From Jacaranda mimosifolia (Eukaryota > Streptophyta > Magnoliopsida > Lamiales > Bignoniaceae), in assembly GCA_018894105.1 (NCBI GenBank), contig CM032120.1:29348710-29412709 (forward strand): a DNA stretch of 64,000 nucleotides. Reading direction: 5' to 3'. The position numbers were made by a program, and so were the translations under genes. The notes below the pieces were generated by a model. That model saw only the letters and a program-made list of their open reading frames with translations. It was not told the DNA's origin and did not search any database. This document shows positions 4,864-64,000 of this stretch, in pieces; position 1 is the first letter of the stretch; every line of letters begins with the position of its first letter.

Positions 4864-4866
4864 ATT

Positions 4867-26957: not shown

Positions 26958-26979
26958 TTTTGATAGAGGATTCTGCTTT

Positions 26980-26995: not shown

Positions 26996-26997
26996 AA

Positions 26998-29149: not shown

Positions 29150-29272
29150 CAGCTTCATTTCACAGCTTAAAACACCATTTTGACAGTTCTTTAATTTTTG
29201 CTTTTGTTTGCTACTTCTCTCATTTCCATAGATCCCATATTTTCTTTTTTTCATTGATTTTTGTTCATAATC

Positions 29273-44801: not shown

Positions 44802-44813
44802 AAAATTGTATTA

Positions 44814-47800
44814 ATGAATCAAGAAAAAATTGATTTTTCAAAAGGTTCAAATGCTCGTCAGTTAATAAAAACTGAGTTTCTTAAAGAAAGATGGGAAGTT
44901 TTTAGAAAATGGTTTTTTGAAAGCTTTACCAAAGATCAACAAAATGGTTTTCAGGAAGAGTTTTATAAATTCGTTTCTGAAAAGAATCAATTAGTACCTT
45001 TTGTTGCATGGTTTGTGGTAACTTATGTGGAACCATATATTGCAGTTCTGGAAAGAACTTATGTGTTTGATTCTGGTAGGAAAGAAAAATGTATTTTCCC
45101 TCCCCAGGATGCATTTCATGTTGAAGGATCTAAGGACATTCCTTTTACTGCTTTCAATAAATTGTTGGAAGGTGGTCAGTTTAATGTCACAATTGGTCAT
45201 CTTAATAACTTGGTAAAACAAGGTAATTATGCTGCTCTTTACCTTAATGTGCTAGGTGAGAGTATGTATGGGCTTGATAATAGGCTCAATTTAATTTTAA
45301 ACCAAGTTAATAAAACCAATAAATTGATAGGTGATTTAGAAGAACAGGTTAATCAAATGAAGAAAATGATTTTGGAAAAATCTGTTTCTATCACCCCGGT
45401 AACTGAAATTATTTCAATGCCAACAATTCAACCTCCCCCTGAGATCCATAATTTCAAACTCAGGAATTTATCTGAATTAGAAAAACTTATCAATAAAAAG
45501 TTTTCTGATTTAAATATTTCGGTAATTGATGATAACCTAGATGATAGTTCATATATCAAACAGGTTAATGAAGAAGTTAATAAACTTAGGTATGCTGATA
45601 GGCCTACACTAAGGACTTATTATTATCCTCGTCCCTCCCCAATTGATGTTTTGCATGAGGAACAGGATCTGATTACCAATAATTCGTTTTCTGGCAAACA
45701 TATCTATGAATGGAATTTAGATGGTTTTGCTGAACGTCATATTTACAATCTTGTGCATCGCATGCTTATGTATTCTACTATCTGTAAGAATAATGGCAAT
45801 GATGACAGAAGTGTAGCCCAAATGATTGTGGCTGGGTTCACTGGTCAAATAAAAGGCTGGTGGGATAATTATTTAACAAGTGCTAGCAAAGATGAAATCC
45901 TAGGAGCTGTTAAATTAGAACAGGAAGGATCATCTAACACAGATAATCAAAATGCTGTGTATACTTTAATTGTTACTATTATTGAGCATTTTACTGGCAG
46001 GTGGACTAATAATAATGAGTATATTAGGACCCTGTTAAATGGTTTAAAGTGTCAAAGTCTCACCTCATTTAGGTGGTACAAGGATACTTTTATGTCTAGA
46101 GTAATGGAACTCCCAGAGGTTAATAGTACCCACTGGAAATCTAAATTTATAGATGGTCTGCCTTCATTATTTGCGGAAAGGGTTAGAAAAACTCTTAGGC
46201 AGAATGAGTCTAGTATAGACTATGACAAATGCACTTATGGTAAGTTAATTGCAACTTGCATCCAAGAAGGTTTAGGTTTATGCAATGAGATAAAACTGAA
46301 CCAACAAATAAAAAAGAATAACTTAGCTGAAAAACAACAGTTAGGTCAATTTTGTGGTCAGTTTGGGATGGAGAATTCTAAGCTAATTGAAAATAAACCA
46401 CAAGGTAAATCCAAACCTGATAAAAAGAGTAGACATAGGTCGCATAAGGCTAGGTCTTCTCAAAAATTGGAAAAGAAAAAATTGAGAAAAGATAAACATG
46501 ATTCTGATAAAAGAAAAATGTTTAGAAAATTTAGAAAGCATGGTGCCTGTTGGAAATGTGGTAAAATAGGACATTATGCTGATAAGTGTAAAATGAGAGA
46601 AAAAATTAGGAGCCTAGATATTGATGATAATATCAAGGATGTTTTGTGCAAATTGATGCTTGAATCTTCTGATGAAGAAGATAATGATATTTCTGATCAT
46701 GCATTCTCTGATTTCAATAATGCTTTGAATTGCATGAAATCTGATTGTGATGGAACTGATAATTTTACTGATTCTGATTCTGCACATAGTAGTTCTGAAT
46801 CTGATATGAATGTCAATCATATTATGGCACAATTTAATGAAGGTGTTATTAATGTTATTTCTGATAATAGCGCTTTTGAATTGTTAAAAATGATTAAGGA
46901 TCCAATTCTTAGATCTAAAATCATTGATAGCATAGGTGATGAACCTAGTACATCTAATTCTATTAATGAAAATAGGATAGGTGGTAATAGTGAACCATAC
47001 TCAATGACAGAGGTGTACAAAATGCTAGAAAGTAGGAATAAGCATAGCTCACCTACTACTATTGCTGACCTTAATAAAGAGGTTATTAGTCTTAAAAATG
47101 AGATTAATGAATTGAAAAGAAATAATAGATTTCTTGAGGATAGAATTAGGAAAATAGAGATTGCTCAAGGAAAGCAAATAGTGCCTTCCTCTTTGCCTGC
47201 TTCTCTACCTGTTTTCCCTGTCCCCAATTCCCCCAATAAGCCTAATTTGTCTCTGTTCAAACTGAATGATATGTTTGATGTGCCTGATAATTTTCAGTTT
47301 AATAATTTGTCTGATGATTTTCTATCTAAATTAGAGGTAGTTACTTCTCAGAAATGGTTAATTAAAATAAAGCTTTTAATTGGAAATAGTTTTTCAAAAG
47401 AATTTACTGCACTAGTTGATAGTGGTGCAGATTTAAATTGCATTCAGGAAGGTTTAATACCTACTAGGTATTTTGAGAAAACATCTCATGTCCTTCGTTC
47501 TGCTAATGGAGAAAAACTAGATATAAGTTTTAAACTCCCCAATGCTTTTATTTGCAAAAATAAATGTTGCATTCCAATGAGTTTTCTTTTGGTTAAAAAT
47601 ATTTCTAATCAAATAATTTTAGGTACACCCTTTTTAAAGAAAATATTTCCTTTAAAAATGGTTAATGAAAAAGGTTTTTCTGGAGTCTTTAATGGTAAAG
47701 ATTTAACTTTTCAGTTTATAACTGAACCGTTTTCCAGAATGCTGAATCAACTTCAGGATTTGATTGTTAATAAAAATAATCAAATTAATTTTCTTAAGGA

Positions 47801-49268
47801 AGAAATTGTTAGTCTTAATATAGATGAAAAATTGCAAAATCCTAAATTAAAGGAAAAAATTGCTTTAATTGAAACAGGTTTAATTGTTTCTGTTTGCAAT
47901 GATCATCCAAATGCTTTTTGGAATAGAAAGAAGCATATTGTTGATTTGCCTTATGATGATTCATTTGATGGTAGTATCCCTACTAAGGCTAGGCCGTGTC
48001 AAATGAATAGTGAAACTTTGGTTTACTGCAAAAAAGAAATAGAGTCTTTATTGCATAAAGGGTTAATTAGACCTACCAAGTCTGCTTGGTCCTGCACTGC
48101 ATTCTATGTGAATAAACACAGTGAGCAAGAACGTGGTGCACTTAGATTGGTCATTAATTATAAGCCTCTTAATAAAGCCTTAAAATGGATTAAGTACCCA
48201 ATCCCCAATAAAAAAGATTTGCTTGACAGATTATTCAGTGCAAATATCTTTTCCAAATTTGATTTAAAATCTGGATATTGGCAGATTCAAATAGCTGAGT
48301 CTGATAGGTTTAAAACTGCCTTCAATGTTCCTTTTGGGCAATATGAATGGAATGTTATGCCTTTTGGTCTGAAGAATGCCCCTTCAGAATTCCAGAAGAT
48401 TATGAATGATATCTTCAATTCTTATAGTGATTTCATAATTGTTTACATCGATGATATATTGGTATTTTCAAATAATATAGAAATGCATTTTAAACATTTG
48501 CATGTGTTTAAACAGGTCATGATAAATAGTGGTCTGGTCATTTCTAAACCCAAAATGGTTTTATGTCAAACCAAAATTAAATTTTTGGGTCATTTCATTG
48601 AAAAAGGTAATATCATACCTATTGATAGGAGTATTGAGTTTGCATCTAAATTTCCTGATGTCATTCTTGATAAAACCCAATTGCAAAGGTTTTTAGGGAG
48701 TCTTAATTACATTTCTCCTTATTATAAAAATCTTGCTGATGATACTGCATGCTTACATGATAGGCTTAAGAAATTGCCTAAGCCTTGGAATGATGAGCAC
48801 ACACAATCTGTAATTAGGATTAAGAATAGGGTTAAAGAATTGCCTTGCCTTATGTTGTCTAATCCTAATTGGGAAAAAATCATTGAAACTGATGCATCAG
48901 ATATTGGTTTTGGTGGTATATTAAAACAAATTAATCCTAGTAATAAACAGGAAATACTTGTTAGATTTTATTCTGGTAAATGGAATTCAAGCCAGTCTAA
49001 TTATGCTACTGTAGTCAAAGAAATTTTTGCTATAGTAAAATGTGTTCTTAAATTTCAAGATGACTTGTATAATCAATTTTTTATTATAAAAACTGATTGT
49101 CAAGCTGCACAATTCATGTTTAATAAAGATTTTAAACATAATGTTTCAAAGCAAATGTTTGCGAGGTGGCAAGCTTATTTAGCCCCTTTTGATTTTAAAA
49201 TTGTTTATAAGAAAGGGAATGAGAATTATCTTCCCGACTTCTTAACAAGAGAATTTTTGCAGGGCTAA
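44814..49268 (+). CDS. Pararetrovirus polyprotein (capsid, zinc finger, protease, RT, RNase H), copy 1
   Basis: 1484 residues, uninterrupted, starting 12 bases after the preceding stop. The N-terminal ~200 residues end in a coiled-coil-like stretch; a capsid-like region lies at about 290-530. A CCHC zinc knuckle CWKCGKIGHYADKC starts at residue 579. The protease Asp is residue 869 (LVDSGAD). Reverse transcriptase spans roughly 1060-1250 with YIDD at 1211-1214, and RNase H follows with Asp 1360 in ETDASDIG. In the family this yields capsid protein and the enzymes that copy pregenomic RNA. Against the other copies it has private differences at residues 949 (Met), 1006 (Lys) and 1054 (Ser). Whether it is expressed is unknown. 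Confidence 0.94.
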   Translation: MNQEKIDFSKGSNARQLIKTEFLKERWEVFRKWFFESFTKDQQNGFQEEFYKFVSEKNQLVPFVAWFVVTYVEPYIAVLERTYVFDSGRKEKCIFPPQDAFHVEGSKDIPFTAFNKLLEGGQFNVTIGHLNNLVKQGNYAALYLNVLGESMYGLDNRLNLILNQVNKTNKLIGDLEEQVNQMKKMILEKSVSITPVTEIISMPTIQPPPEIHNFKLRNLSELEKLINKKFSDLNISVIDDNLDDSSYIKQVNEEVNKLRYADRPTLRTYYYPRPSPIDVLHEEQDLITNNSFSGKHIYEWNLDGFAERHIYNLVHRMLMYSTICKNNGNDDRSVAQMIVAGFTGQIKGWWDNYLTSASKDEILGAVKLEQEGSSNTDNQNAVYTLIVTIIEHFTGRWTNNNEYIRTLLNGLKCQSLTSFRWYKDTFMSRVMELPEVNSTHWKSKFIDGLPSLFAERVRKTLRQNESSIDYDKCTYGKLIATCIQEGLGLCNEIKLNQQIKKNNLAEKQQLGQFCGQFGMENSKLIENKPQGKSKPDKKSRHRSHKARSSQKLEKKKLRKDKHDSDKRKMFRKFRKHGACWKCGKIGHYADKCKMREKIRSLDIDDNIKDVLCKLMLESSDEEDNDISDHAFSDFNNALNCMKSDCDGTDNFTDSDSAHSSSESDMNVNHIMAQFNEGVINVISDNSAFELLKMIKDPILRSKIIDSIGDEPSTSNSINENRIGGNSEPYSMTEVYKMLESRNKHSSPTTIADLNKEVISLKNEINELKRNNRFLEDRIRKIEIAQGKQIVPSSLPASLPVFPVPNSPNKPNLSLFKLNDMFDVPDNFQFNNLSDDFLSKLEVVTSQKWLIKIKLLIGNSFSKEFTALVDSGADLNCIQEGLIPTRYFEKTSHVLRSANGEKLDISFKLPNAFICKNKCCIPMSFLLVKNISNQIILGTPFLKKIFPLKMVNEKGFSGVFNGKDLTFQFITEPFSRMLNQLQDLIVNKNNQINFLKEEIVSLNIDEKLQNPKLKEKIALIETGLIVSVCNDHPNAFWNRKKHIVDLPYDDSFDGSIPTKARPCQMNSETLVYCKKEIESLLHKGLIRPTKSAWSCTAFYVNKHSEQERGALRLVINYKPLNKALKWIKYPIPNKKDLLDRLFSANIFSKFDLKSGYWQIQIAESDRFKTAFNVPFGQYEWNVMPFGLKNAPSEFQKIMNDIFNSYSDFIIVYIDDILVFSNNIEMHFKHLHVFKQVMINSGLVISKPKMVLCQTKIKFLGHFIEKGNIIPIDRSIEFASKFPDVILDKTQLQRFLGSLNYISPYYKNLADDTACLHDRLKKLPKPWNDEHTQSVIRIKNRVKELPCLMLSNPNWEKIIETDASDIGFGGILKQINPSNKQEILVRFYSGKWNSSQSNYATVVKEIFAIVKCVLKFQDDLYNQFFIIKTDCQAAQFMFNKDFKHNVSKQMFARWQAYLAPFDFKIVYKKGNENYLPDFLTREFLQG

Positions 49269-50749
49269 TGGAAGCTGGATTTTTCCCTTTCTCCAATAGA
49301 GGAGGACGGCGTAATTTTTCCAATAGAGGAAGAGGCCGAAATGTCAATGTTCCTAAGCCGCCATTAATACAACATGGCAAAATGAAGCTAATAGAAGCTT
49401 CTGACCTTTCTTTTGGTCAAGCCACCCAATTTCCCCAATATTTTTGTGACCCAATGTTCACAGACCCAGATATGCTAGCCGAATTCATGAAATTCCAGCA
49501 AACTAAAGCAGCAGAAGAAAATAAATCTTCTGGCTCTTCATCCAGCCAAACCCAATCCCAAGCCGAAGGATCTAATACTAGACCTTCATATGTTAATGTG
49601 GCTGCTCATATTGAAACCGTGGTTGATGAGGATAGCCTTGTCACCTTTGAGCAGAAATCTGCCAAGGACCCAATTTTGGTTCTTGAGAAGTCCGATCTCA
49701 AATGGAGAGATGATCCCTGGAAATTATTCCAGAGGTATTTGGATGTGGCCTCATATCCTGCTGGTTCTTACAAGAACAGGTCTTTTTATGAGAATATACT
49801 CATAAGCTCTGGTTCTGCAGAGTTCAAGCATAATGAAGCTAATACGCAGGAAAAAATGAATTTCGCGTATAGTAGGATCATAATTAAAAAGATCATTTCA
49901 ATTGAGGAATGGGGTATCTCTTCATTAAAAGAGAAAGAATTATTCATTAACAAGGGTATAATTAAATACACCTTTTGGGATTATATCCAGGCATTTTCAA
50001 ATGCACTGTTATATGAAAACAGTAGGAGGAAGCATACTTGGTTCATTAAGGTATGTCCAGAAGTCTTCAATAATGGACTTCCCAATTGGTTTTTTGATTG
50101 GTGGCAATTCCACGGTCCCTCAGAAAAAATTTTACCAGATCAATTCAGAAGGGGATTTGAGGAATGGAAAAAATATGCCCCGTCCATATTTCAGGAAGAG
50201 GACAGTGATAGAGCCTCTTTTCAATTTTATTCAGAATTTGGTATCCCATGGATTTGGAAATGGTGTCCAGAGGTTGGGGTAAATCAATTCAATAATCCAT
50301 GTTTGCAAAGAACATATTATTGCAAATGGTGGAATAAGATGCTTCAGTTCGATAAAAATACTAAGAGAATTGAAGGAAAAGATACCCTTAATAATGTAAA
50401 CTTAATGACCCAGGTTTACAAAGAAAAATTCGAAAGGGATCAACAAAAGGAGGCATCGTCAATTTTGGGTCTAGCTTCTGAAAAAATTCGTCGGCGCAAA
50501 GGGAAAATGTCCAAGGCCGATTTGATGAATGAAGTCTTTAAAATGGTCCAAGAACAAGTAGGACAGTTTGAAGATAATAGCTCAGACACTGAGGAAAATA
50601 AATCCGCCAGTGAGACTGCATCAATGAGCTCTAAATCTACTTCAAGAGTAGAAGATTTTCAAGAAGCTCAGGATCCAGAGGATAATATTCCTTCTGAAGA
50701 AGCTGTCAGGAAATTCATTGCTGACATGGAGCAACAAAATAAGTTGTAA
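49268..50749 (+). CDS. Pararetrovirus third reading frame, 493 residues, function unknown, copy 1
   Basis: Its ATG overlaps the preceding stop by one base (TAATG), which suggests translation by re-initiation. Residues 10-30 are Gly/Arg/Asn-rich (NRGGRRNFSNRGRGRN), 75-100 Ser/Gln-rich; the middle (about 220-370) is unusually rich in Trp and aromatic residues (e.g. NWFFDWWQFHGPSEK); the C-terminal ~90 residues are acidic and Ser-rich. I recognise no catalytic motif. Its position is that of the transactivator/inclusion-body gene of several caulimovirids, but similarity to it was not seen. It differs from copy 2 at one residue (Glu in QEKMN against Lys). Confidence 0.88.
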   Translation: MEAGFFPFSNRGGRRNFSNRGRGRNVNVPKPPLIQHGKMKLIEASDLSFGQATQFPQYFCDPMFTDPDMLAEFMKFQQTKAAEENKSSGSSSSQTQSQAEGSNTRPSYVNVAAHIETVVDEDSLVTFEQKSAKDPILVLEKSDLKWRDDPWKLFQRYLDVASYPAGSYKNRSFYENILISSGSAEFKHNEANTQEKMNFAYSRIIIKKIISIEEWGISSLKEKELFINKGIIKYTFWDYIQAFSNALLYENSRRKHTWFIKVCPEVFNNGLPNWFFDWWQFHGPSEKILPDQFRRGFEEWKKYAPSIFQEEDSDRASFQFYSEFGIPWIWKWCPEVGVNQFNNPCLQRTYYCKWWNKMLQFDKNTKRIEGKDTLNNVNLMTQVYKEKFERDQQKEASSILGLASEKIRRRKGKMSKADLMNEVFKMVQEQVGQFEDNSSDTEENKSASETASMSSKSTSRVEDFQEAQDPEDNIPSEEAVRKFIADMEQQNKL

Positions 50750-50941
50750 TTGATGTAATTGATTAGTGAAGCAAATAGTTGCTTCTGGGTAAAACAATAG
50801 TGTTTTCACTGTGCACTTTCCAAAAAGTGAATAGTAAATCACTGTTCACTTTTGACTTTCGGTAAAGTAAATAGTACTTTACTGTTGGTCACTGTTGCGG
50901 ATTCGAAATATTTTGAAGTCCGCACAGTACCATTTTTTTTG

Positions 50942-50952
50942 TTTATAAGTAG
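50942..50952 (+). promoter_or_regulatory. TATA box of the viral promoter, copy 1/2 region
   Basis: TTTATAAGTAG in identical surroundings to 59290-59300 at the end of copy 2. Position about 1.05 kb before the primer site (about 0.63 kb without the duplications). Confidence 0.6.
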
Positions 50953-51140
50953 ATGTTAGGATCATTTGTTGAGAGAGCTTTCGCACGCATACTCTCTATA
51001 ATTTTCTTACTCTTTTGTAATTTGATTTTGATATTTGTATAACTGTTTATATAATTTGTAAATTAAAGAAGAGAAGAGGAAGGAAAAATTTTCCTTCAGT
51101 TCGTGGTGTTCGAAGAGGTAGTCCTTCTCACCCCCTCCTT

Positions 51141-51858
51141 TTAATTGTGTTTTTCCCTAGCCTAATGCAAGGCTAAGGGGTTCAGTGTTAAATAGACATG
51201 ATAAAGATGTTGTTTGTTTAAATCATGGTTAATCAAGTAGTTTGGACTGTGATGTAGGTATTTGATTTCGATTTACGCTTATAAATCATTACCTTGATGC
51301 TGTTATCCGGATCTCTCCCCTTTCGGGTTCTAAGGACCTTGACCACTGAGTAGCTTTGTTGTCCCTTGTATGCCCTTGTTAGCCGGGGTAGGCGTTTGTG
51401 GGCTTGGACGGAACAGATCTATTTCAGTTGTGTTAAAGTCTTGGGTAAAGTTCTCCCGATTTGGCGGTTTATTTTGTGTTGTTAAAGATCCGTGAACACT
51501 TAATTGTGTTTTTCCCTAGCCTAATGCAAGGCTAAGGGGTTCAGTGTTAAATAGACATGATAAAGATGTTGTTTGTTTAAATCATGGTTAATCAAGTAGT
51601 TTGGACTGTGATGTAGGTATTTGATTTCGATTTACGCTTATAAATCATTACCTTGATGCTGTTATCCGGATCTCTCCCCTTTCGGGTTCTAAGGACCTTG
51701 ACCACTGAGTAGCTTTGTTGTCCCTTGTATGCCCTTGTTAGCCGGGGTAGGCGTTTGTGGGCTTGGACGGAACAGATCTATTTCAGTTGTGTTAAAGTCT
51801 TGGGTAAAGTTCTCCCGATTTGGCGGTTTATTTTGTGTTGTTAAAGATCCGTGAACAC
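51141..51858 (+). repeat. 359-bp direct duplication in the viral leader
   Basis: The segment starting TTAATTGTGTTTTTCCCTAG occurs at 51141 and again at 51500, apparently identical, back to back. Copy 2 has it only once (from about 59488). It contains the small palindrome AGCCTAATGCAAGGCT. Confidence 0.95.
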
Positions 51859-51860
51859 TT

Positions 51861-51994
51861 AAGGTCTTGATCTATGCCCGTATTTTGAATGATTATTCTT
51901 GCCTCATAAGATCCCGCGCTAAAAATGAAGGTCTTGATCTATGCCCGTATTTTGAATGATTATTCTTGCCTCATAAGATCCCGCGCTAAAAATG
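51861..51994 (+). repeat. 67-bp direct duplication before the primer site
   Basis: AAGGTCTTGATCTATGCC to GCGCTAAAAATG occurs at 51861-51927 and again at 51928-51994. The equivalent next to 59850-59915 is single and ends in GCAACAAAAAATG instead. Confidence 0.95.
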
Positions 51995-53149
51995 GTATCG
52001 GAGCCATGGTTTTATGAAGAACATCTTTTGACTGTTTATTTAACACTATTTCCTAAAATGAGTTTTTTTAAAGGGAAATCCTCTTTAATTAAAAATTCAC
52101 AGTTGGAGGAAATAGATCTTCCAAAAAATTTGGACTTATTAAATAAATGGACCATTCCAAAAGTGGATCCGAAGGTAATTTATCAATTCGGAACTTTTGA
52201 AAAAATAAGTTTTAAACAAGTTGTTAAAACAACTGAGGAAATTATCCCTATTCATAAAGATGATATGTCTTTACAATTATTGCACAGATCTGATATTGAT
52301 AGATATAGATCTGAGTTTAAATTCTTGCATATCGGTTTAATTCAAGTTGCTTTTAAGCCCTTGACTCTGGACAATTTACCAGAGAGTTTTATTGCTGTGT
52401 TACGTGATGCGCGTAATCTTGACTGGAAAAAATCAATCATGGGTGTTATTCAATCTAGTTTGGCCCATGGTCCAGTCTATTTTAATGTTTATCCTAATCT
52501 TGCACTTTCGATTATGGATGAAAATATCTTACATGCTTTAACTTTAAATGTTAAGTTGCATGGATTTAATTATATGCCCGGTACAGATGTGATGTGTGTT
52601 TGTTACCGTGTTTATTTTAAGCCTTGCTTTACATTAAATCCAATGTGTAAGGTTATGAATTTGGATAAAAATGAGACTATTCTAATTGAATCTAATTTTA
52701 ATAAGTCTCAGATTACAACTAGGAAACCAATTAAATGGAATGAAATTCAGTTTCCTAATAATTGGTTAATGGAAAATGTTGTTCCAATTCAGCCTGTAAT
52801 ACAGACTGATATTGATAGAATAGTTCAAACGCCCGATGGTGATGTTTCTATTCAATTCAAACCAATTAATCGCACTGCACACACTGCACTCAATGTGTTA
52901 AGATCCAATCGATCTTCTTTTTCTGTGATTGATCCAATTGATTATGTTGTAGAATCGCCTAATATAACTAGAGCGTCTACATCTAGAGTTAATGAATCTA
53001 GGTCAGATAATAATCTGGAAACTAGATTTGGAAAATTAAAAATTTCTCCTAATAACATTGTTCATGGTATTCCTCGTAATAATAGCGATGAGTCTGTTGA
53101 ACTTACTGAGTCGGAAATGGACTTTTCTGTGAGAAATACTCGCGTTTAA
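51992..53149 (+). CDS. Pararetrovirus movement protein (30K superfamily), copy 2
   Basis: 385 residues, complete. The core 30K pattern is visible: IGLIQVAFKPLT at residues 114-125, LRDAR near 137, GPVYFNVYPNLAL further on. In the family this protein lines or enlarges plasmodesmata so virus moves between cells. The frame opens at the ATG at 51992, which overlaps the tRNA primer site (51993-52006), giving a start MVSEP; the second Met at 52058 (MSFFKGK) is an equally possible start and would leave the primer site untranslated. The C-terminal third is Asn/Ser-rich. The polyprotein begins 12 bases after the stop. The gene is intact here and cut short in copy 1. Confidence 0.92.
   Translation: MVSEPWFYEEHLLTVYLTLFPKMSFFKGKSSLIKNSQLEEIDLPKNLDLLNKWTIPKVDPKVIYQFGTFEKISFKQVVKTTEEIIPIHKDDMSLQLLHRSDIDRYRSEFKFLHIGLIQVAFKPLTLDNLPESFIAVLRDARNLDWKKSIMGVIQSSLAHGPVYFNVYPNLALSIMDENILHALTLNVKLHGFNYMPGTDVMCVCYRVYFKPCFTLNPMCKVMNLDKNETILIESNFNKSQITTRKPIKWNEIQFPNNWLMENVVPIQPVIQTDIDRIVQTPDGDVSIQFKPINRTAHTALNVLRSNRSSFSVIDPIDYVVESPNITRASTSRVNESRSDNNLETRFGKLKISPNNIVHGIPRNNSDESVELTESEMDFSVRNTRV
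51993..52006 (+). promoter_or_regulatory. tRNA-Met primer-binding site, start of copy 2 (one change)
   Basis: TGGTATCGGAGCCA. The standard caulimovirid site, complementary to the 3' end of initiator tRNA-Met, is TGGTATCAGAGCCA, as found at 59916; here A is changed to G at the eighth base. By convention this marks position 1 of the viral circle. Confidence 0.9.
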
Positions 53150-53161
53150 AAAATTGTATTA

Positions 53162-56100
53162 ATGAATCAAGAAAAAATTGATTTTTCAAAAGGTTCAAAT
53201 GCTCGTCAGTTAATAAAAACTGAGTTTCTTAAAGAAAGATGGGAAGTTTTTAGAAAATGGTTTTTTGAAAGCTTTACCAAAGATCAACAAAATGGTTTTC
53301 AGGAAGAGTTTTATAAATTCGTTTCTGAAAAGAATCAATTAGTACCTTTTGTTGCATGGTTTGTGGTAACTTATGTGGAACCATATATTGCAGTTCTGGA
53401 AAGAACTTATGTGTTTGATTCTGGTAGGAAAGAAAAATGTATTTTCCCTCCCCAGGATGCATTTCATGTTGAAGGATCTAAGGACATTCCTTTTACTGCT
53501 TTCAATAAATTGTTGGAAGGTGGTCAGTTTAATGTCACAATTGGTCATCTTAATAACTTGGTAAAACAAGGTAATTATGCTGCTCTTTACCTTAATGTGC
53601 TAGGTGAGAGTATGTATGGGCTTGATAATAGGCTCAATTTAATTTTAAACCAAGTTAATAAAACCAATAAATTGATAGGTGATTTAGAAGAACAGGTTAA
53701 TCAAATGAAGAAAATGATTTTGGAAAAATCTGTTTCTATCACCCCGGTAACTGAAATTATTTCAATGCCAACAATTCAACCTCCCCCTGAGATCCATAAT
53801 TTCAAACTCAGGAATTTATCTGAATTAGAAAAACTTATCAATAAAAAGTTTTCTGATTTAAATATTTCGGTAATTGATGATAACCTAGATGATAGTTCAT
53901 ATATCAAACAGGTTAATGAAGAAGTTAATAAACTTAGGTATGCTGATAGGCCTACACTAAGGACTTATTATTATCCTCGTCCCTCCCCAATTGATGTTTT
54001 GCATGAGGAACAGGATCTGATTACCAATAATTCGTTTTCTGGCAAACATATCTATGAATGGAATTTAGATGGTTTTGCTGAACGTCATATTTACAATCTT
54101 GTGCATCGCATGCTTATGTATTCTACTATCTGTAAGAATAATGGCAATGATGACAGAAGTGTAGCCCAAATGATTGTGGCTGGGTTCACTGGTCAAATAA
54201 AAGGCTGGTGGGATAATTATTTAACAAGTGCTAGCAAAGATGAAATCCTAGGAGCTGTTAAATTAGAACAGGAAGGATCATCTAACACAGATAATCAAAA
54301 TGCTGTGTATACTTTAATTGTTACTATTATTGAGCATTTTACTGGCAGGTGGACTAATAATAATGAGTATATTAGGACCCTGTTAAATGGTTTAAAGTGT
54401 CAAAGTCTCACCTCATTTAGGTGGTACAAGGATACTTTTATGTCTAGAGTAATGGAACTCCCAGAGGTTAATAGTACCCACTGGAAATCTAAATTTATAG
54501 ATGGTCTGCCTTCATTATTTGCGGAAAGGGTTAGAAAAACTCTTAGGCAGAATGAGTCTAGTATAGACTATGACAAATGCACTTATGGTAAGTTAATTGC
54601 AACTTGCATCCAAGAAGGTTTAGGTTTATGCAATGAGATAAAACTGAACCAACAAATAAAAAAGAATAACTTAGCTGAAAAACAACAGTTAGGTCAATTT
54701 TGTGGTCAGTTTGGGATGGAGAATTCTAAGCTAATTGAAAATAAACCACAAGGTAAATCCAAACCTGATAAAAAGAGTAGACATAGGTCGCATAAGGCTA
54801 GGTCTTCTCAAAAATTGGAAAAGAAAAAATTGAGAAAAGATAAACATGATTCTGATAAAAGAAAAATGTTTAGAAAATTTAGAAAGCATGGTGCCTGTTG
54901 GAAATGTGGTAAAATAGGACATTATGCTGATAAGTGTAAAATGAGAGAAAAAATTAGGAGCCTAGATATTGATGATAATATCAAGGATGTTTTGTGCAAA
55001 TTGATGCTTGAATCTTCTGATGAAGAAGATAATGATATTTCTGATCATGCATTCTCTGATTTCAATAATGCTTTGAATTGCATGAAATCTGATTGTGATG
55101 GAACTGATAATTCTACTGATTCTGATTCTGCACATAGTAGTTCTGAATCTGATATGAATGTCAATCATATTATGGCACAATTTAATGAAGGTGTTATTAA
55201 TGTTATTTCTGATAATAGCGCTTTTGAATTGTTAAAAATGATTAAGGATCCAATTCTTAGATCTAAAATCATTGATAGCATAGGTGATGAACCTAGTACA
55301 TCTAATTCTATTAATGAAAATAGGATAGGTGGTAATAGTGAACCATACTCAATGACAGAGGTGTACAAAATGCTAGAAAGTAGGAATAAGCATAGCTTAC
55401 CTACTACTATTGCTGACCTTAATAAAGAGGTTATTAGTCTTAAAAATGAGATTAATGAATTGAAAAGAAATAATAGATTTCTTGAGGATAGAATTAGGAA
55501 AATAGAGATTGCTCAAGGAAAGCAAATAGTGCCTTCCTCTTTGCCTGCTTCTCTACCTGTTTTCCCTGTCCCCAATTCCCCCAATAAGCCTAATTTGTCT
55601 CTGTTCAAACTGAATGATATGTTTGATGTGCCTGATAATTTTCAGTTTAATAATTTGTCTGATGATTTTCTATCTAAATTAGAGGTAGTTACTTCTCAGA
55701 AATGGTTAATTAAAATAAAGCTTTTAATTGGAAATAGTTTTTCAAAAGAATTTACTGCACTAGTTGATAGTGGTGCAGATTTAAATTGCATTCAGGAAGG
55801 TTTAATACCTACTAGGTATTTTGAGAAAACATCTCATGTCCTTCGTTCTGCTAATGGAGAAAAACTAGATATAAGTTTTAAACTCCCCAATGCTTTTATT
55901 TGCAAAAATAAATGTTGCATTCCAATGAGTTTTCTTTTGGTTAAAAATATTTCTAATCAAATAATTTTGGGTACACCCTTTTTAAAGAAAATATTTCCTT
56001 TAAAATTGGTTAATGAAAAAGGTTTTTCTGGAGTCTTTAATGGTAAAGATTTAACTTTTCAGTTTATAACTGAACCGTTTTCCAGAATGCTGAATCAACT

Positions 56101-57616
56101 TCAGGATTTGATTGTTAATAAAAATAATCAAATTAATTTTCTTAAGGAAGAAATTGTTAGTCTTAATATAGATGAACAATTGCAAAATCCTAAATTAAAG
56201 GAAAAAATTGCTTTAATTGAAACAGGTTTAATTGTTTCTGTTTGTAATGATCATCCAAATGCTTTTTGGAATAGAAAGAAGCATATTGTTGATTTGCCTT
56301 ATGATGATTCATTTGATGGTAGGATCCCTACTAAGGCTAGGCCGTGTCAAATGAATAGTGAAACTTTGGTTTACTGCAAAAAAGAAATAGAATCTTTATT
56401 GCATAAAGGGTTAATTAGACCTACCAAGTCTGCTTGGTCCTGCACTGCATTCTATGTGAATAAACACAGTGAGCAAGAACGTGGTGCACTTAGATTGGTC
56501 ATTAATTATAAGCCTCTTAATAAAGCCTTAAAATGGATTAAGTACCCAATCCCCAATAAAAAAGATTTGCTTGACAGATTATTCAGTGCAAATATCTTTT
56601 CCAAATTTGATTTAAAATCTGGATATTGGCAGATTCAAATAGCTGAGTCTGATAGGTTTAAAACTGCCTTCAATGTTCCTTTTGGGCAATATGAATGGAA
56701 TGTTATGCCTTTTGGTCTGAAGAATGCCCCTTCAGAATTCCAGAAGATTATGAATGATATCTTCAATTCTTATAGTGATTTCATAATTGTTTACATCGAT
56801 GATATATTGGTATTTTCAAATAATATAGAAATGCATTTTAAACATTTGCATGTGTTTAAACAGGTCATGATAAATAGTGGTCTGGTCATTTCTAAACCCA
56901 AAATGGTTTTATGTCAAACCAAAATTAAATTTTTGGGTCATTTCATTGAAAAAGGTAATATCATACCTATTGATAGGAGTATTGAGTTTGCATCTAAATT
57001 TCCTGATGTCATTCTTGATAAAACCCAATTGCAAAGGTTTTTAGGGAGTCTTAATTACATTTCTCCTTATTATAAAAATCTTGCTGATGATACTGCATGC
57101 TTACATGATAGGCTTAAGAAATTGCCTAAGCCTTGGAATGATGAGCACACACAATCTGTAATTAGGATTAAGAATAGGGTTAAAGAATTGCCTTGCCTTA
57201 TGTTGTCTAATCCTAATTGGGAAAAAATCATTGAAACTGATGCATCAGATATTGGTTTTGGTGGTATATTAAAACAAATTAATCCTAGTAATAAACAGGA
57301 AATACTTGTTAGATTTTATTCTGGTAAATGGAATTCAAGCCAGTCTAATTATGCTACTGTAGTCAAAGAAATTTTTGCTATAGTAAAATGTGTTCTTAAA
57401 TTTCAAGATGACTTGTATAATCAATTTTTTATTATAAAAACTGATTGTCAAGCTGCACAATTCATGTTTAATAAAGATTTTAAACATAATGTTTCAAAGC
57501 AAATGTTTGCGAGGTGGCAAGCTTATTTAGCCCCTTTTGATTTTAAAATTGTTTATAAGAAAGGGAATGAGAATTATCTTCCCGACTTCTTAACAAGAGA
57601 ATTTTTGCAGGGCTAA
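53162..57616 (+). CDS. Pararetrovirus polyprotein, copy 2
   Basis: 1484 residues, open from end to end, with the same domains and positions as copy 1 (CCHC knuckle at 579, protease Asp 869, YIDD 1211-1214, RNase H Asp 1360). All active-site residues I could check are present. Private differences are Ser at 651 (others Phe) and Leu at 746 (others Ser). It follows the movement protein by 12 bases and overlaps the third frame by one base, so all three frames sit on one likely transcript. No integrase domain is present, as expected of pararetroviruses. Confidence 0.95.
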   Translation: MNQEKIDFSKGSNARQLIKTEFLKERWEVFRKWFFESFTKDQQNGFQEEFYKFVSEKNQLVPFVAWFVVTYVEPYIAVLERTYVFDSGRKEKCIFPPQDAFHVEGSKDIPFTAFNKLLEGGQFNVTIGHLNNLVKQGNYAALYLNVLGESMYGLDNRLNLILNQVNKTNKLIGDLEEQVNQMKKMILEKSVSITPVTEIISMPTIQPPPEIHNFKLRNLSELEKLINKKFSDLNISVIDDNLDDSSYIKQVNEEVNKLRYADRPTLRTYYYPRPSPIDVLHEEQDLITNNSFSGKHIYEWNLDGFAERHIYNLVHRMLMYSTICKNNGNDDRSVAQMIVAGFTGQIKGWWDNYLTSASKDEILGAVKLEQEGSSNTDNQNAVYTLIVTIIEHFTGRWTNNNEYIRTLLNGLKCQSLTSFRWYKDTFMSRVMELPEVNSTHWKSKFIDGLPSLFAERVRKTLRQNESSIDYDKCTYGKLIATCIQEGLGLCNEIKLNQQIKKNNLAEKQQLGQFCGQFGMENSKLIENKPQGKSKPDKKSRHRSHKARSSQKLEKKKLRKDKHDSDKRKMFRKFRKHGACWKCGKIGHYADKCKMREKIRSLDIDDNIKDVLCKLMLESSDEEDNDISDHAFSDFNNALNCMKSDCDGTDNSTDSDSAHSSSESDMNVNHIMAQFNEGVINVISDNSAFELLKMIKDPILRSKIIDSIGDEPSTSNSINENRIGGNSEPYSMTEVYKMLESRNKHSLPTTIADLNKEVISLKNEINELKRNNRFLEDRIRKIEIAQGKQIVPSSLPASLPVFPVPNSPNKPNLSLFKLNDMFDVPDNFQFNNLSDDFLSKLEVVTSQKWLIKIKLLIGNSFSKEFTALVDSGADLNCIQEGLIPTRYFEKTSHVLRSANGEKLDISFKLPNAFICKNKCCIPMSFLLVKNISNQIILGTPFLKKIFPLKLVNEKGFSGVFNGKDLTFQFITEPFSRMLNQLQDLIVNKNNQINFLKEEIVSLNIDEQLQNPKLKEKIALIETGLIVSVCNDHPNAFWNRKKHIVDLPYDDSFDGRIPTKARPCQMNSETLVYCKKEIESLLHKGLIRPTKSAWSCTAFYVNKHSEQERGALRLVINYKPLNKALKWIKYPIPNKKDLLDRLFSANIFSKFDLKSGYWQIQIAESDRFKTAFNVPFGQYEWNVMPFGLKNAPSEFQKIMNDIFNSYSDFIIVYIDDILVFSNNIEMHFKHLHVFKQVMINSGLVISKPKMVLCQTKIKFLGHFIEKGNIIPIDRSIEFASKFPDVILDKTQLQRFLGSLNYISPYYKNLADDTACLHDRLKKLPKPWNDEHTQSVIRIKNRVKELPCLMLSNPNWEKIIETDASDIGFGGILKQINPSNKQEILVRFYSGKWNSSQSNYATVVKEIFAIVKCVLKFQDDLYNQFFIIKTDCQAAQFMFNKDFKHNVSKQMFARWQAYLAPFDFKIVYKKGNENYLPDFLTREFLQG

Positions 57617-59097
57617 TGGAAGCTGGATTTTTCCCTTTCTCCAATAGAGGAGGACGGCGTAATTTTTCCAATAGAGGAAGAGGCCGAAATGTCAATGTTC
57701 CTAAGCCGCCATTAATACAACATGGCAAAATGAAGCTAATAGAAGCTTCTGACCTTTCTTTTGGTCAAGCCACCCAATTTCCCCAATATTTTTGTGACCC
57801 AATGTTCACAGACCCAGATATGCTAGCCGAATTCATGAAATTCCAGCAAACTAAAGCAGCAGAAGAAAATAAATCTTCTGGCTCTTCATCCAGCCAAACC
57901 CAATCCCAAGCCGAAGGATCTAATACTAGACCTTCATATGTTAATGTGGCTGCTCATATTGAAACCGTGGTTGATGAGGATAGCCTTGTCACCTTTGAGC
58001 AGAAATCTGCCAAGGACCCAATTTTGGTTCTTGAGAAGTCCGATCTCAAATGGAGAGATGATCCCTGGAAATTATTCCAGAGGTATTTGGATGTGGCCTC
58101 ATATCCTGCTGGTTCTTACAAGAACAGGTCTTTTTATGAGAATATACTCATAAGCTCTGGTTCTGCAGAGTTCAAGCATAATGAAGCTAATACGCAGAAA
58201 AAAATGAATTTCGCGTATAGTAGGATCATAATTAAAAAGATCATTTCAATTGAGGAATGGGGTATCTCTTCATTAAAAGAGAAAGAATTATTCATTAACA
58301 AGGGTATAATTAAATACACCTTTTGGGATTATATCCAGGCATTTTCAAATGCACTGTTATATGAAAACAGTAGGAGGAAGCATACTTGGTTCATTAAGGT
58401 ATGTCCAGAAGTCTTCAATAATGGACTTCCCAATTGGTTTTTTGATTGGTGGCAATTCCACGGTCCCTCAGAAAAAATTTTACCAGATCAATTCAGAAGG
58501 GGATTTGAGGAATGGAAAAAATATGCCCCGTCCATATTTCAGGAAGAGGACAGTGATAGAGCCTCTTTTCAATTTTATTCAGAATTTGGTATCCCATGGA
58601 TTTGGAAATGGTGTCCAGAGGTTGGGGTAAATCAATTCAATAATCCATGTTTGCAAAGAACATATTATTGCAAATGGTGGAATAAGATGCTTCAGTTCGA
58701 TAAAAATACTAAGAGAATTGAAGGAAAAGATACCCTTAATAATGTAAACTTAATGACCCAGGTTTACAAAGAAAAATTCGAAAGGGATCAACAAAAGGAG
58801 GCATCGTCAATTTTGGGTCTAGCTTCTGAAAAAATTCGTCGGCGCAAAGGGAAAATGTCCAAGGCCGATTTGATGAATGAAGTCTTTAAAATGGTCCAAG
58901 AACAAGTAGGACAGTTTGAAGATAATAGCTCAGACACTGAGGAAAATAAATCCGCCAGTGAGACTGCATCAATGAGCTCTAAATCTACTTCAAGAGTAGA
59001 AGATTTTCAAGAAGCTCAGGATCCAGAGGATAATATTCCTTCTGAAGAAGCTGTCAGGAAATTCATTGCTGACATGGAGCAACAAAATAAGTTGTAA
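57616..59097 (+). CDS. Pararetrovirus third reading frame, 493 residues, function unknown, copy 2
   Basis: Complete and identical to copy 1 apart from one visible residue (Lys in QKKMN). It starts at the TAATG overlap with the polyprotein. The layout is a basic Gly/Arg-rich front, a Trp-rich middle and an acidic Ser-rich tail. That both copies are intact over 493 codons shows this is a real gene. Confidence 0.9.
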   Translation: MEAGFFPFSNRGGRRNFSNRGRGRNVNVPKPPLIQHGKMKLIEASDLSFGQATQFPQYFCDPMFTDPDMLAEFMKFQQTKAAEENKSSGSSSSQTQSQAEGSNTRPSYVNVAAHIETVVDEDSLVTFEQKSAKDPILVLEKSDLKWRDDPWKLFQRYLDVASYPAGSYKNRSFYENILISSGSAEFKHNEANTQKKMNFAYSRIIIKKIISIEEWGISSLKEKELFINKGIIKYTFWDYIQAFSNALLYENSRRKHTWFIKVCPEVFNNGLPNWFFDWWQFHGPSEKILPDQFRRGFEEWKKYAPSIFQEEDSDRASFQFYSEFGIPWIWKWCPEVGVNQFNNPCLQRTYYCKWWNKMLQFDKNTKRIEGKDTLNNVNLMTQVYKEKFERDQQKEASSILGLASEKIRRRKGKMSKADLMNEVFKMVQEQVGQFEDNSSDTEENKSASETASMSSKSTSRVEDFQEAQDPEDNIPSEEAVRKFIADMEQQNKL

Positions 59098-59915
59098 TTG
59101 ATGTAATTGATTAGTGAAGCAAATAGTTGCTTCTGGGTAAAACAATAGTGTTTTCACTGTGCACTTTCCAAAAAGTGAATAGTAAATCACTGTTCACTTT
59201 TGACTTTCGGTAAAGTAAATAGTACTTTACTGTTGGTCACTGTTGCGGATTCGAAATATTTTGAAGTCCGCACAGTACCATTTTTTTTGTTTATAAGTAG
59301 ATGTTAGGATCATTTGTTGAGAGAGCTTTCGCACGCATACTCTCTATAATTTTCTTACTCTTTTGTAATTTGATTTTGATATTTGTATAACTGTTTATAT
59401 AATTTGTAAATTAAAGAAGAGAAGAGGAAGGAAAAATTTTCCTTCAGTTCGTGGTGTTCGAAGAGGTAGTCCTTCTCACCCCCTCCTTTTAATTGTGTTT
59501 TTCCCTAGCCTAATGCAAGGCTAAGGGGTTCAGTGTTAAATAGACATGATAAAGATGTTGTTTGTTTAAATCATGGTTAATCAAGTAGTTTGGACTGTGA
59601 TGTAGGTATTTGATTTCGATTTACGCTTATAAATCATTACCTTGATGCTGTTATCCGGATCTCTCCCCTTTCGGGTTCTAAGGACCTTGACCACTGAGTA
59701 GCTTTGTTGTCCCTTGTATGCCCTTGTTAGCCGGGGTAGGCGTTTGTGGGCTTGGACGGAACAGATCTATTTCAGTTGTGTTAAAGTCTTGGGTAAAGTT
59801 CTCCCGATTTGGCGGTTTATTTTGTGTTGTTAAAGATCCGTGAACACTTAAGGTCTTGATCTATGCCCGTATTTTGAATGATTATTCTTGCCTCATAAGA
59901 TCCCGCAACAAAAAA
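59098..59915 (+). promoter_or_regulatory. Viral promoter and leader at the end of copy 2
   Basis: Same sequence as 50750-51991 without the 359-bp and 67-bp duplications. The TATA box is at 59290-59300. Transcription from here would run through the primer site at 59916 and directly into inverted copy 3, giving RNA antisense to the polyprotein gene. Confidence 0.75.
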
Positions 59916-59929
59916 TGGTATCAGAGCCA
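59916..59929 (+). promoter_or_regulatory. tRNA-Met primer-binding site at the end of copy 2
   Basis: TGGTATCAGAGCCA, the exact standard site. The ATG overlapping it (59915-59917) is followed by GTATCAGAGCC, so the MVSEP reading is preserved, but the viral sequence is cut immediately afterwards. Confidence 0.92.
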
Positions 59930-60047
59930 AATAGTGGTCTGGTCATTTCTAAGCCCAAAATGGTTTTATGTCAAACCAAAATTAAATTTTTGGGTCATTT
60001 CATAAAACCATTTTGGGCTTAGAAATGACCAGACCACTATTTATCAA
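59930..60047. other. Chimeric palindromic junction between copy 2 and copy 3
   Basis: After the primer site comes a ~73-bp plus-strand piece of the reverse transcriptase gene (matching 56873-56945), then about 45 bp of the same region in reverse, then the inverted polyprotein gene of copy 3. The two short pieces form a ~41-bp perfect inverted repeat starting AATAGTGGTCTGG with a ~30-bp loop. Joins show a few bases of overlap (AAAT, CAT, TC). Both short pieces carry G in TCTAAGCCC, as in copy 3 (60725-60735), where copies 1 and 2 have TCTAAACCC. Confidence 0.9.
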
Positions 60048-63000
60048 GATAATTCTCATTCCCTTTCTTATAAACAATTTTAAAATCAAAAGGGGCTAAA
60101 TAAGATTGCCACCTCGCAAACATTTGCTTTGAAACATTATGTTTAAAATCTTTATTAAACATGAATTGTGCAGCTTGACAATCAGTTTTTATAATAAAAA
60201 ATTGATTATACAAGTCATCTTGAAATTTAAGAACACATTTTACTATAGCAAAAATTTCTTTGACTACAGTAGCATAATTAAACTGGCTTGAATTCCATTT
60301 ACCAGAATAAAATCTAACAAGTATTTCTTGTTTATTACTAGGATTAATTTGTTTTAATATACCACCAAAACCAATATCAGATGCATCAGTTTCAATGATT
60401 TTTTCCCAATTAGGATTAGATAACATAAGGCAAGGCAATTCTTTAACCCTATTCTTAATCCTAATTACAGATTGTGTGTGCTCATCATTCCAAGGCTTAG
60501 GCAATTTCTTAAGCCTATCATGTAAGCATGCAGTATCATTAGCAAGATTTTTATAATAAGGAGAAATGTAATTAAGACTCCCTAAAAACCTTTGCAATTG
60601 GGTTTTATCAAGAATAACATCAGGAAATTTAGATGCAAACTCAATACTCCTATCAATAGGTATGATATTACCTTTTTCAATGAAATGACCCAAAAATTTA
60701 ATTTTGGTTTGACATAAAACCATTTTGGGCTTAGAAATGACCAGACCACTATTTATCATGACCTGTTTAAACACATGTAAATGTTTAAAATGCATTTCTA
60801 TATTATTAGAAAACACCAATATATCATCGATGTAAACAATTATGAAATCACTATAAGGATTGAAGATATCATTCATAATCTTCTGGAATTCTGAAGGGGC
60901 ATTCTTCAGACCAAAAGGCATAACATTCCATTCATATTGCCCAAAAGGAACATTGAAGGCAGTTTTAAACCTATCAGACTCAGCTATTTGAATCTGCCAA
61001 TATCCAGATTTTAAATCAAATTTGGAAAAGATATTTGCACTGAATAATCTGTCAAGCAAATCTTTTTTATTGGGGATTGGGTACTTAATCCATTTTAAGG
61101 CTTTATTAAGAGGCTTATAATTAATGACCAATCTAAGTGCACCACGTTCTTGCTCACTGTGTTTATTCACATAGAATGCAGTGCAGGACCAAGCAGACTT
61201 GGTAGGTCTAATTAACCCTTTATGCAATAAAGATTCTATTTCTTTTTTGCAGTAAACCAAAGTTTCACTATTCATTTGACACGGCCTAGCCTTAGTAGGG
61301 ATCCTACCATCAAATGAATCATCATAAGGCAAATCAACAATATGCTTCTTTCTATTCCAAAAAGCATTTGGATGATCATTACAAACAGAAACAATTAAAC
61401 CTGTTTCAATTAAAGCAATTTTTTCCTTTAATTTAGGATTTTGCAATTGTTCATCTATATTAAGACTAACAATTTCTTCCTTAAGAAAATTAATTTGATT
61501 ATTTTTATTAACAATCAAATCCTGAAGTTGATTCAGCATTCTGGAAAACGGTTCAGTTATAAACTGAAAAGTTAAATCTTTACCATTAAAGACTCCAGAA
61601 AAACCTTTTTCATTAACCAATTTTAAAGGAAATATTTTCTTTAAAAAGGGTGTACCCAAAATTATTTGATTAGAAATATTTTTAACCAAAAGAAAACTCA
61701 TTGGAATGCAACATTTATTTTTGCAAATAAAAGCATTGGGGAGTTTAAAACTTATATCTAGTTTTTCTCCATTAGCAGAACGAAGGACATGAGATGTTTT
61801 CTCAAAATACCTAGTAGGTATTAAACCTTCCTGAATGCAATTTAAATCTGCACCACTATCAACTAGTGCAGTAAATTCTTTTGAAAAACTATTTCCAATT
61901 AAAAGCTTTATTTTAATTAACCATTTCTGAGAAGTAACTACCTCTAATTTAGATAGAAAATCATCAGACAAATTATTAAACTGAAAATTATCAGGCACAT
62001 CAAACATATCATTCAGTTTGAACAGAGACAAATTAGGCTTATTGGGGGAATTGGGGACAGGGAAAACAGGTAGAGAAGCAGGCAAAGAGGAAGGCACTAT
62101 TTGCTTTCCTTGAGCAATCTCTATTTTCCTAATTCTATCCTCAAGAAATCTATTATTTCTTTTCAATTCATTAATCTCATTTTTAAGACTAATAACCTCT
62201 TTATTAAGGTCAGCAATAGTAGTAGGTGAGCTATGCTTATTCCTACTTTCTAGCATTTTGTACACCTCTGTCATTGAGTATGGTTCACTATTACCACCTA
62301 TCCTATTTTCATTAATAGAATTAGATGTACTAGGTTCATCACCTATGCTATCAATGATTTTAGATCTAAGAATTGGATCCTTAATCATTTTTAACAATTC
62401 AAAAGCGCTATTATCAGAAATAACATTAATAACACCTTCATTAAATTGTGCCATAATATGATTGACATTCATATCAGATTCAGAACTACTATGTGCAGAA
62501 TCAGAATCAGTAAAATTATCAGTTCCATCACAATCAGATTTCATGCAATTCAAAGCATTATTGAAATCAGAGAATGCATGATCAGAAATATCATTATCTT
62601 CTTCATCAGAAGATTCAAGCATCAATTTGCACAAAACATCCTTGATATTATCATCAATATCTAGGCTCCTAATTTTTTCTCTCATTTTACACTTATCAGC
62701 ATAATGTCCTATTTTACCACATTTCCAACAGGCACCATGCTTTCTAAATTTTCTAAACATTTTTCTTTTATCAGAATCATGTTTATCTTTTCTCAATTTT
62801 TTCTTTTCCAATTTTTGAGAAGACCTAGCCTTATGCGACCTATGTCTACTCTTTTTATCAGGTTTGGATTTACCTTGTGGTTTATTTTCAATTAGCTTAG
62901 AATTCTCCATCCCAAACTGACCACAAAATTGACCTAACTGTTGTTTTTCAGCTAAGTTATTCTTTTTTATTTGTTGGTTCAGTTTTATCTCATTGCATAA

Positions 63001-64000
63001 ACCTAAACCTTCTTGGATGCAAGTTGCAATTAACTTACCATAAGTGCATTTGTCATAGTCTATACTAGACTCATTCTGCCTAAGAGTTTTTCTAACCCTT
63101 TCCGCAAATAATGAAGGCAGACCATCTATAAATTTAGATTTCCAGTGGGTACTATTAACCTCTGGGAGTTCCATTACTCTAGACATAAAAGTATCCTTGT
63201 ACCACCTAAATGAGGTGAGACTTTGACACTTTAAACCATTTAACAGGGTCCTAATATACTCATTATTATTAGTCCACCTGCCAGTAAAATGCTCAATAAT
63301 AGTAACAATTAAAGTATACACAGCATTTTGATTATCTGTGTTAGATGATCCTTCCTGTTCTAATTTAACAGCTCCTAGGATTTCATCTTTGCTAGCACTT
63401 GTTAAATAATTATCCCACCAGCCTTTTATTTGACCAGTGAACCCAGCCACAATCATTTGGGCTACACTTCTGTCATCATTGCCATTATTCTTACAGATAG
63501 TAGAATACATAAGCATGCGATGCACAAGATTGTAAATATGACGTTCAGCAAAACCATCTAAATTCCATTCATAGATATGTTTGCCAGAAAACGAATTATT
63601 GGTAATCAGATCCTGTTCCTCATGCAAAACATCAATTGGGGAGGGACGAGGATAATAATAAGTCCTTAGTGTAGGCCTATCAGCATACCTAAGTTTATTA
63701 ACTTCTTCATTAACCTGTTTGATATATGAACTATCATCTAGGTTATCATCAATTACCGAAATATTTAAATCAGAAAACTTTTTATTGATAAGTTTTTCTA
63801 ATTCAGATAAATTCCTGAGTTTGAAATTATGGATCTCAGGGGGAGGTTGAATTGTTGGCATTGAAATAATTTCAGTTACCGGGGTGATAGAAACAGATTT
63901 TTCCAAAATCATTTTCTTCATTTGATTAACCTGTTCTTCTAAATCACCTATCAATTTATTGGTTTTATTAACTTGGTTTAAAATTAAATTGAGCCTATTA
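60037..64000 (-). pseudogene. Pararetrovirus polyprotein, inverted copy 3, partial
   Basis: On the minus strand this is the polyprotein gene from about residue 156 (at the window edge, continuing beyond it) to about residue 1471, open throughout. The natural last residues are lost at the junction: after GNENYL it reads two junction-derived residues and stops. Domain motifs match copies 1 and 2 (zinc knuckle, protease Asp, YIDD, RNase H). Private changes include Pro for Ser (NPYSD), Asn for Asp (LANDT), Phe for Ser (SSQFNY) and Ser for Ala (RWQSYL). The movement protein and third frame of this copy are not in the window. Confidence 0.93.

What the first reader, a model, noticed from the sequence alone, without database searches (positions are those of the whole stretch)
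53620..64000. Sense and inverted copies form a ~4-kb-per-arm inverted repeat under a viral promoter
Copy 2's polyprotein gene (+) and copy 3 (-) are near-identical over at least 3.9 kb and face each other. The promoter at 59290 reads straight into copy 3, giving antisense RNA; read-through from the copy 1 promoter would give a long hairpin. Such RNA is a ready source of siRNAs against this virus, so the locus may act as a heritable silencing source. The layout is seen; the function is inferred.
Basis: partly seen in the sequence, partly recalled or inferred. Interest (0 to 1): 0.85.

Follow-up and report, generated by a model that had tools for sequence, protein, structure and literature searches.

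The report
Inverted array of integrated plant virus
A stretch of plant chromosome carries three nearly identical copies of a virus genome, one of them backwards, which appear to have been inserted together in a single event; such a layout can make double-stranded RNA against the virus, but whether it does so here is untested.

Summary
The inverted repeat is real and longer than reported: 5,589-nt arms, 16 mismatches, the second arm running 1,634 bp past the window.

It belongs to a 21.9-kb endogenous caulimovirid array: truncated copy, complete copy, inverted copy. A perfect 146-bp host duplication abuts both ends, so the array probably entered in one event, and the three copies are different mosaics of viral alleles. 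The inverted arm was thus likely joined at integration, not made later. Junctions in five mapped arrays are 22 same-orientation and 24 inverted, as random joining predicts. Four further insertions have flanking duplications with perfect cores of 299-623 bp: 5 of 8 assessable insertions in all.

A silencing role is plausible but unmeasured. In a simple transcript model the copy-1 promoter gives ordinary genomic RNA; the copy-2 promoter gives antisense RNA with self-complementary ends. The silencing idea is already published for tomato. My searches found no report of long caulimovirid target duplications.

The parts
44047..44192 (+). left copy of a 146-bp host target-site duplication; right copy at L009:2118-2263, perfect and in the same orientation
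44193..51500 (+). viral copy 1, starting inside the MP gene (unit 550-7860), with polyprotein gene 44814-49268 and ORF3 49268-50749 open
50944..50949 (+). TATA-like box of copy-1 leader promoter (P1)
   Evidence: promoter role inferred
51141..51991 (+). leader with a 359-bp and a 67-bp tandem duplication between copy 1 and copy 2
51992..53149 (+). copy 2 movement-protein gene (Pfam MP), inside the inverted arm
53162..57616 (+). copy 2 polyprotein gene: coat domain, protease, reverse transcriptase, RNase H (searched in three pieces)
57616..59097 (+). copy 2 ORF3 (493 aa), no Pfam match, 10 related proteins found; outside the inverted arms
51992..57580 (+). sense arm of the full inverted repeat (5,589 nt; partner 60046-64000 plus L009:1-1634)
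59292..59297 (+). TATA-like box of copy-2 leader promoter (P2), reads into copy 3
   Evidence: promoter role inferred
59432..59915 (+). copy 2 leader part complementary to the antisense leader L009:1634-2117 at the far end of the array (484 nt, 99.8%)
59916..59927 (+). exact match to the tRNA-Met primer-site motif at the right end of copy 2
   Evidence: motif recalled
59929..60045 (+). junction filler: 75-nt sense piece of the polyprotein gene that folds back, 42-bp perfect stem (59929 paired to 60042)
60046..64000 (-). copy 3, inverted polyprotein part (antisense arm); continues in L009:1-1634

Best explanation
This is a young endogenous caulimovirid array. In one repair event several viral DNA molecules, often opened at the tRNA primer site, were joined end to end in random orientation and captured in a chromosomal break, whose host sequence was duplicated over 146 bp. 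The inverted copy is therefore probably a by-product of integration (supported by sequence). If the promoter at 59292 is active it makes an antisense RNA of up to about 6.8 kb over polyprotein and MP whose leader ends can pair, and which can pair in trans with sense RNA from other copies or from virus; this would feed DCL-dependent siRNAs, as reported for tomato EPRV inverted repeats (inferred, not measured; I put a real siRNA output at about 0.5).
For: A perfect 146-bp direct host duplication abuts both array ends; in the genome search only these two places are near-perfect, the other 41 listed matches reach at most 83% (40 of 533 candidates scored). The three copies carry different allele mosaics, with alleles shared with other arrays. 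16 of 102 fragment ends lie within 25 nt of the primer site, 0.66 expected. Joint orientation is 22 same to 24 inverted. The centre holds fold-back filler that carries copy 3's variant base. Four other insertions have perfect core duplications of 299, 443, 383 and 623 bp. P2 transcript model: 554 nt self-complementary.
Against: No flanking duplication was found at C10 or C14 (3.45 Mb) and only a weak ~36-bp one at C11 (6.4 Mb), so the signature is not uniform; C13 and C30 end in assembly gaps and cannot be judged. No transcript or small-RNA data. Eight AATAAA motifs lie on the P2-sense strand of the inverted copy (four in the window; four in L009) and could end the P2 transcript early. C10 copies are less alike (27 of 6,415 nt). 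The fragment-end count treats linked ends as independent, and its tiles resolve ends only to some tens of nt.
Confidence: 0.75

Rival explanations
1. The locus is a selected heritable antiviral silencing locus: the inverted copy persists because its siRNAs protect the plant from this virus.
For: The layout fits the published tomato case as summarised in PMC10377300 section 3.5. 6 of 21 modelled promoters, in 4 of 5 arrays, give self-complementary RNA.
Against: Inverted joints are near the 50% expected by chance. The array looks too young to show maintenance: no mismatch in the 146-bp duplication. No siRNA data.
Confidence: 0.2
2. The inverted copy arose after integration by inverted duplication or recombination between integrated copies.
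For: Recombination between integrated copies is a proposed source of caulimovirid arrays (PMC10377300 section 3.1). One C30 block is duplicated.
Against: Copy 3 carries 12 alleles over 56768-57521 that copies 1 and 2 lack, 10 of the 12 being the C30 haplotype. Host duplications sit at the outer ends of the whole array.
Confidence: 0.08
3. Assembly artefact: repeats wrongly joined.
For: Near-identical repeats are hard to assemble; the C30 and C13 arrays end in N gaps.
Against: No N in the window or in L009; each copy has its own variants; the junction filler and host duplication have exact ends.
Confidence: 0.07

Closest known systems
Transcriptionally competent siRNA areas (TSAs) of tomato, Valli et al. 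2023, known here only from the summary in PMC10377300 section 3.5; the original is not held
   Same: rearranged endogenous caulimovirid with inverted-repeat layout; predicted dsRNA source
   Different: here no siRNA or transcript measured; arms 99.7% identical and apparently young; the predicted RNA is mainly antisense with paired leader ends
Infectious endogenous banana streak virus loci (eBSV), as summarised in PMC10377300 section 3.4
   Same: viral fragments duplicated in the same and opposite directions within one locus
   Different: different virus; a flanking host duplication is described here, and the summary that I read mentions none
Petunia vein clearing virus tandem arrays, as summarised in PMC10377300 section 3.4
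   Same: head-to-tail copies, so the first promoter can give a genome-length transcript
   Different: separate MP gene, polyprotein gene and ORF3 here (petunia virus layout recalled); an inverted copy
Tandem duplications by fill-in at staggered breaks (PMC8355091, outline and abstract read)
   Same: break ends with complementary overhangs, filled in, duplicate local DNA
   Different: here foreign DNA lies between the two copies; the pathway in this plant is inferred

Membership tests
Endogenous caulimovirid (EPRV) | MP, coat, protease, RT-RNase H in caulimovirid order | tested here: met
   Pfam MP, Caulimovir_coat_dom, RVP, RVT_1 and RNase H matches
Endogenous caulimovirid (EPRV) | tRNA-Met primer site in the leader | tested here: met
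   exact 12-nt match at 59916, one mismatch at 51993; motif and tRNA identity recalled
Endogenous caulimovirid (EPRV) | no integrase core domain | tested here: met
   no rve match at E <= 0.001 in the three polyprotein pieces, ORF3 or MP
Named genus of Caulimoviridae | RT at least 55% identical to a genus type member | not tested
   no type-member sequences compared; best-scoring relative 67% (Solanum stoloniferum genome protein); no virus name among the names shown for the 120 listed hits
TSA-type silencing locus | rearranged EPRV with inverted repeat | tested here: met
TSA-type silencing locus | transcribed and rich in 22-nt siRNA | not testable with these tools
   no expression or small-RNA data
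TSA-type silencing locus | siRNAs silence complementary transcripts in trans | not testable with these tools
   needs a sensor assay
Target-site-duplicating insertion | direct host duplication abutting both ends | tested here: met
   C4 146 bp perfect; 5 of 8 assessable insertions, 2 more not assessable
Integrase- or transposase-mediated insertion | short fixed-length target duplication and fixed element ends | tested here: not met
   core duplication lengths 146-623 bp and variable viral ends

The most novel reading that the evidence does not exclude
These pararetroviral arrays integrate by a distinctive repair route that duplicates 0.15-0.6 kb of host DNA and ligates several viral molecules in random orientation, so an inverted-repeat locus able to make antiviral siRNA can be born in a single step from a mixed infection, and the host duplication gives a clock for when it happened.
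Probability: 0.3. Interest if true: 0.8.

Novelty: new variant of a known kind. Interest (0 to 1): 0.5.

Why it matters
The review read here calls the integration mechanism of these viruses speculative. Long perfect host duplications at both ends make it testable: they point to staggered breaks or replication-linked capture, suggest that whole mosaic arrays can arrive at once, and give a date independent of viral variation. If the locus makes siRNA, it would show that potential heritable silencing can arise as an immediate side effect of integration, with no need for selection to build the inverted repeat.

Tried and rejected
Cruciform origin of the host duplications (each duplication being one palindrome): the five folded as DNA are no more structured than shuffles (z -0.25 to -1.46); rejected. 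Duplication edges as mere repeat-element edges: at C4 a related repeat (L035) runs straight through the right edge of a joined empty-site model with one copy of the segment, and at C11 (22.09 Mb) collinear blocks in L029 do likewise, at only 74-79% identity. A genome-wide version of this test at C11 was asked six times and never answered, nor was one for the C4 right flank or for the uniqueness of the C5 duplication. An ORF3-region genome map did not complete. A first transcript walk missed promoters by demanding one exact tile position (19 found, 5 self-complementary); one search replaced it (21 and 6). Host species was not identified; genus was not assigned. Paper searches on target duplications were judged from the listings; of those papers I opened passages of PMC2946954, PMC3017797, PMC4241990, PMC8256270, PMC10377300, PMC10741241 and found no target duplication of a caulimovirid there. 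The Valli paper and the Gayral banana paper are not held, and most subscription papers are not, so the absence is weak.

Full report
WHAT IS THERE. The window lies at G000:C4:29348710-29412709 of a 707-Mb genome. Its right third holds an endogenous caulimovirid. The 7,924-nt unit, taken from copy 2, has a movement-protein gene (51992-53149), a polyprotein gene (53162-57616) with coat, protease, RT and RNase H domains, an ORF3 of 493 aa without Pfam match (57616-59097), and a leader that ends at a match to the tRNA-Met primer-site motif. Copy 1 is truncated at its left end (unit 550 onwards), copy 2 is complete, and copy 3 is inverted. Copy 1 and copy 2 differ at 10 of 7,307 positions. Named relatives are proteins from dicot genomes such as Solanum, Penstemon, Lactuca, Trifolium, Manihot and Rhododendron. 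A movement-protein probe has 40 matches at 99% or more, a lower bound (40 of 285 candidates scored).

THE INVERTED REPEAT. In the window 3,955 nt are reverse complementary with 14 mismatches. The window cuts the arm: it continues 1,634 nt in L009 with 2 further mismatches, to the first base of MP, followed by a 484-nt antisense leader. The full arm is 5,589 nt with 16 mismatches. At the centre, 59929-60045 is a small fold-back: 75 nt of sense polyprotein sequence, then reverse complement of its start, with a 42-bp perfect stem (-79.7 kcal/mol for 59900-60070, z -14.5). It carries the base that copy 3 has at 56896, not that of copies 1 and 2, so it was probably copied from copy 3's lineage.

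ORIGIN. Host DNA 44047-44192 recurs perfectly and in direct orientation at L009:2118-2263, touching both ends of the 21,925-bp array. In the genome search these two are the only near-perfect places; the other 41 listed matches reach at most 83% (40 of 533 candidates scored). This is a target-site duplication around the whole array, so the array, inverted copy included, most simply came in at once. At 22 variable sites, copies within the C1, C10, C11 and C30 arrays share one haplotype per array with rare exceptions (one site in one C10 copy, one site in a short C30 piece), while the three C4 copies are three different mosaics. Over the 12 sites in 56768-57521, copy 3 matches C30 at 10, and copies 1 and 2 match the main C10 haplotype at 8 or 9 depending on the C10 copy (my count). 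The arms therefore seem to come from different viral genomes, which argues against a later inverted duplication.

IS INVERSION SPECIAL? In five arrays mapped by short tiles into 51 pieces, neighbouring viral pieces are in the same orientation at 22 joints and inverted at 24 (C1 2/4, C10 5/1, C11 8/8, C30 4/10, C4 3/1). That is what random joining gives overall; C10 and C30 lean opposite ways, and part of C30 is a duplicated block. Of 102 fragment ends, 16 lie within 25 nt of the primer site, 0.66 expected; leaving out the C30 block, 15 of 92. Minus-strand DNA synthesis starts there in this family (recalled), so virion-type DNA opened there is the likely substrate.

LONG HOST DUPLICATIONS. I looked at the edges of ten insertions. 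Five have long direct host duplications at both ends: C4 146, C1 299, C7 443, C11 (22.09 Mb) 383 and C5 623 bp as perfect cores, 1,894 bp in all. The raw alignments were 146, 302, 460, 383 and 629 bp; their 1, 6 and 2 mismatches (C1, C7, C5) fall at the outermost bases, where junction sequence begins, and were trimmed to give the cores. C11 (6.4 Mb) shows only an AT-rich ~36-bp match at 94%; C10 and C14 (3.45 Mb) show none. C30 and C13 end in N gaps and cannot be judged. So 5 of 8 assessable, out of a larger number of clusters that I did not open. Host DNA in the window (44,046 bp), L010 and L011 has no direct repeat of 140 bp or more at 98.5%. The 383-bp segment belongs to a high-copy host repeat, other scored copies at most 94% (40 of 1,227 candidates scored). 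Related repeat copies hold one copy of the segment in line with the flanks, but at only 74-79% identity. With an assumed 7e-9 substitutions per site per year (recalled), 0 changes in 1,894 bp gives a pooled upper limit near 0.11 million years; trimming and gene conversion could hide more.

HOW IT COULD WORK. A simple walk along the mapped pieces from each TATA-like site to the next sense poly(A)-like region gives: copy-1 promoter, 8.5 kb, ordinary sense RNA, nothing self-complementary; copy-2 promoter, 6.8 kb to the array end, 6,044 nt antisense and 554 nt present in both orientations. Across five arrays 6 of 21 promoters give at least 100 nt of self-complementary RNA. The poly(A)-like site used is an AATTAAA at 59409, not a canonical AATAAA, and the model ignores termination in antisense sequence, where eight AATAAA occur. 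The likely dsRNA is thus antisense RNA pairing with its own leader ends and, in trans, with sense RNA from the other copies or from virus. This part is inference.

COMPARISON. The review PMC10377300 (its sections 2.1-2.2 and all of 3 read) states that inverted-repeat EPRVs in tomato make 22-nt siRNA that can silence transcripts, and that inverted EPRV fragments occur in banana. Passages of PMC12904150 repeat the concept, and passages of PMC9124383 describe 22-nt EPRV siRNAs in tomato hybrids. The same review calls the mechanism of integration speculative and names (TA)n sites and end joining. I saw no target duplication of caulimovirids in the listings nor in the passages opened. Fill-in at staggered breaks is a known route to tandem duplications (PMC8355091, abstract; studied there in mammalian cells).

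VERDICT. Observation confirmed and extended. Interpretation partly supported: possible silencing source, of a published kind, unmeasured here, with a corrected siRNA prediction (MP plus polyprotein against ORF3). The more interesting result is the one-step integration signature.

Noticed in passing
17842-27668: LTR-retrotransposon-like element: direct repeats 93-96% alike 9,153-9,154 bp apart, with integrase and RT domains on the minus strand between them.
   Followed up: no
8079-14200: Diverged tandem repeats with about 450-bp spacing, interrupted between about 8.6 and 11.5 kb.
   Followed up: no
29261-30055: ORF of 264 aa with an SRF-type (MADS) domain.
   Followed up: no
51141-51991: The leader between copies 1 and 2 has a 359-bp tandem duplication and a 67-bp duplication that copy 2's own leader lacks.
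   Followed up: partly
51993-52004 and 59916-59927: The primer site at the copy 1/2 joint has one mismatch to the tRNA-type motif while the one at the right end of copy 2 is exact; this may reflect copying from the tRNA.
   Followed up: no
G000:C30:434623-441632 (L013, L014): Within the C30 array a block of viral pieces, including the same 324-nt and 56-nt inverted bits, recurs.
   Followed up: no
L035:620-874, L029:954-1679: Dispersed host repeats related to the C4 and C11 target segments; at these two sites the insertions fall in such repeats.
   Followed up: partly
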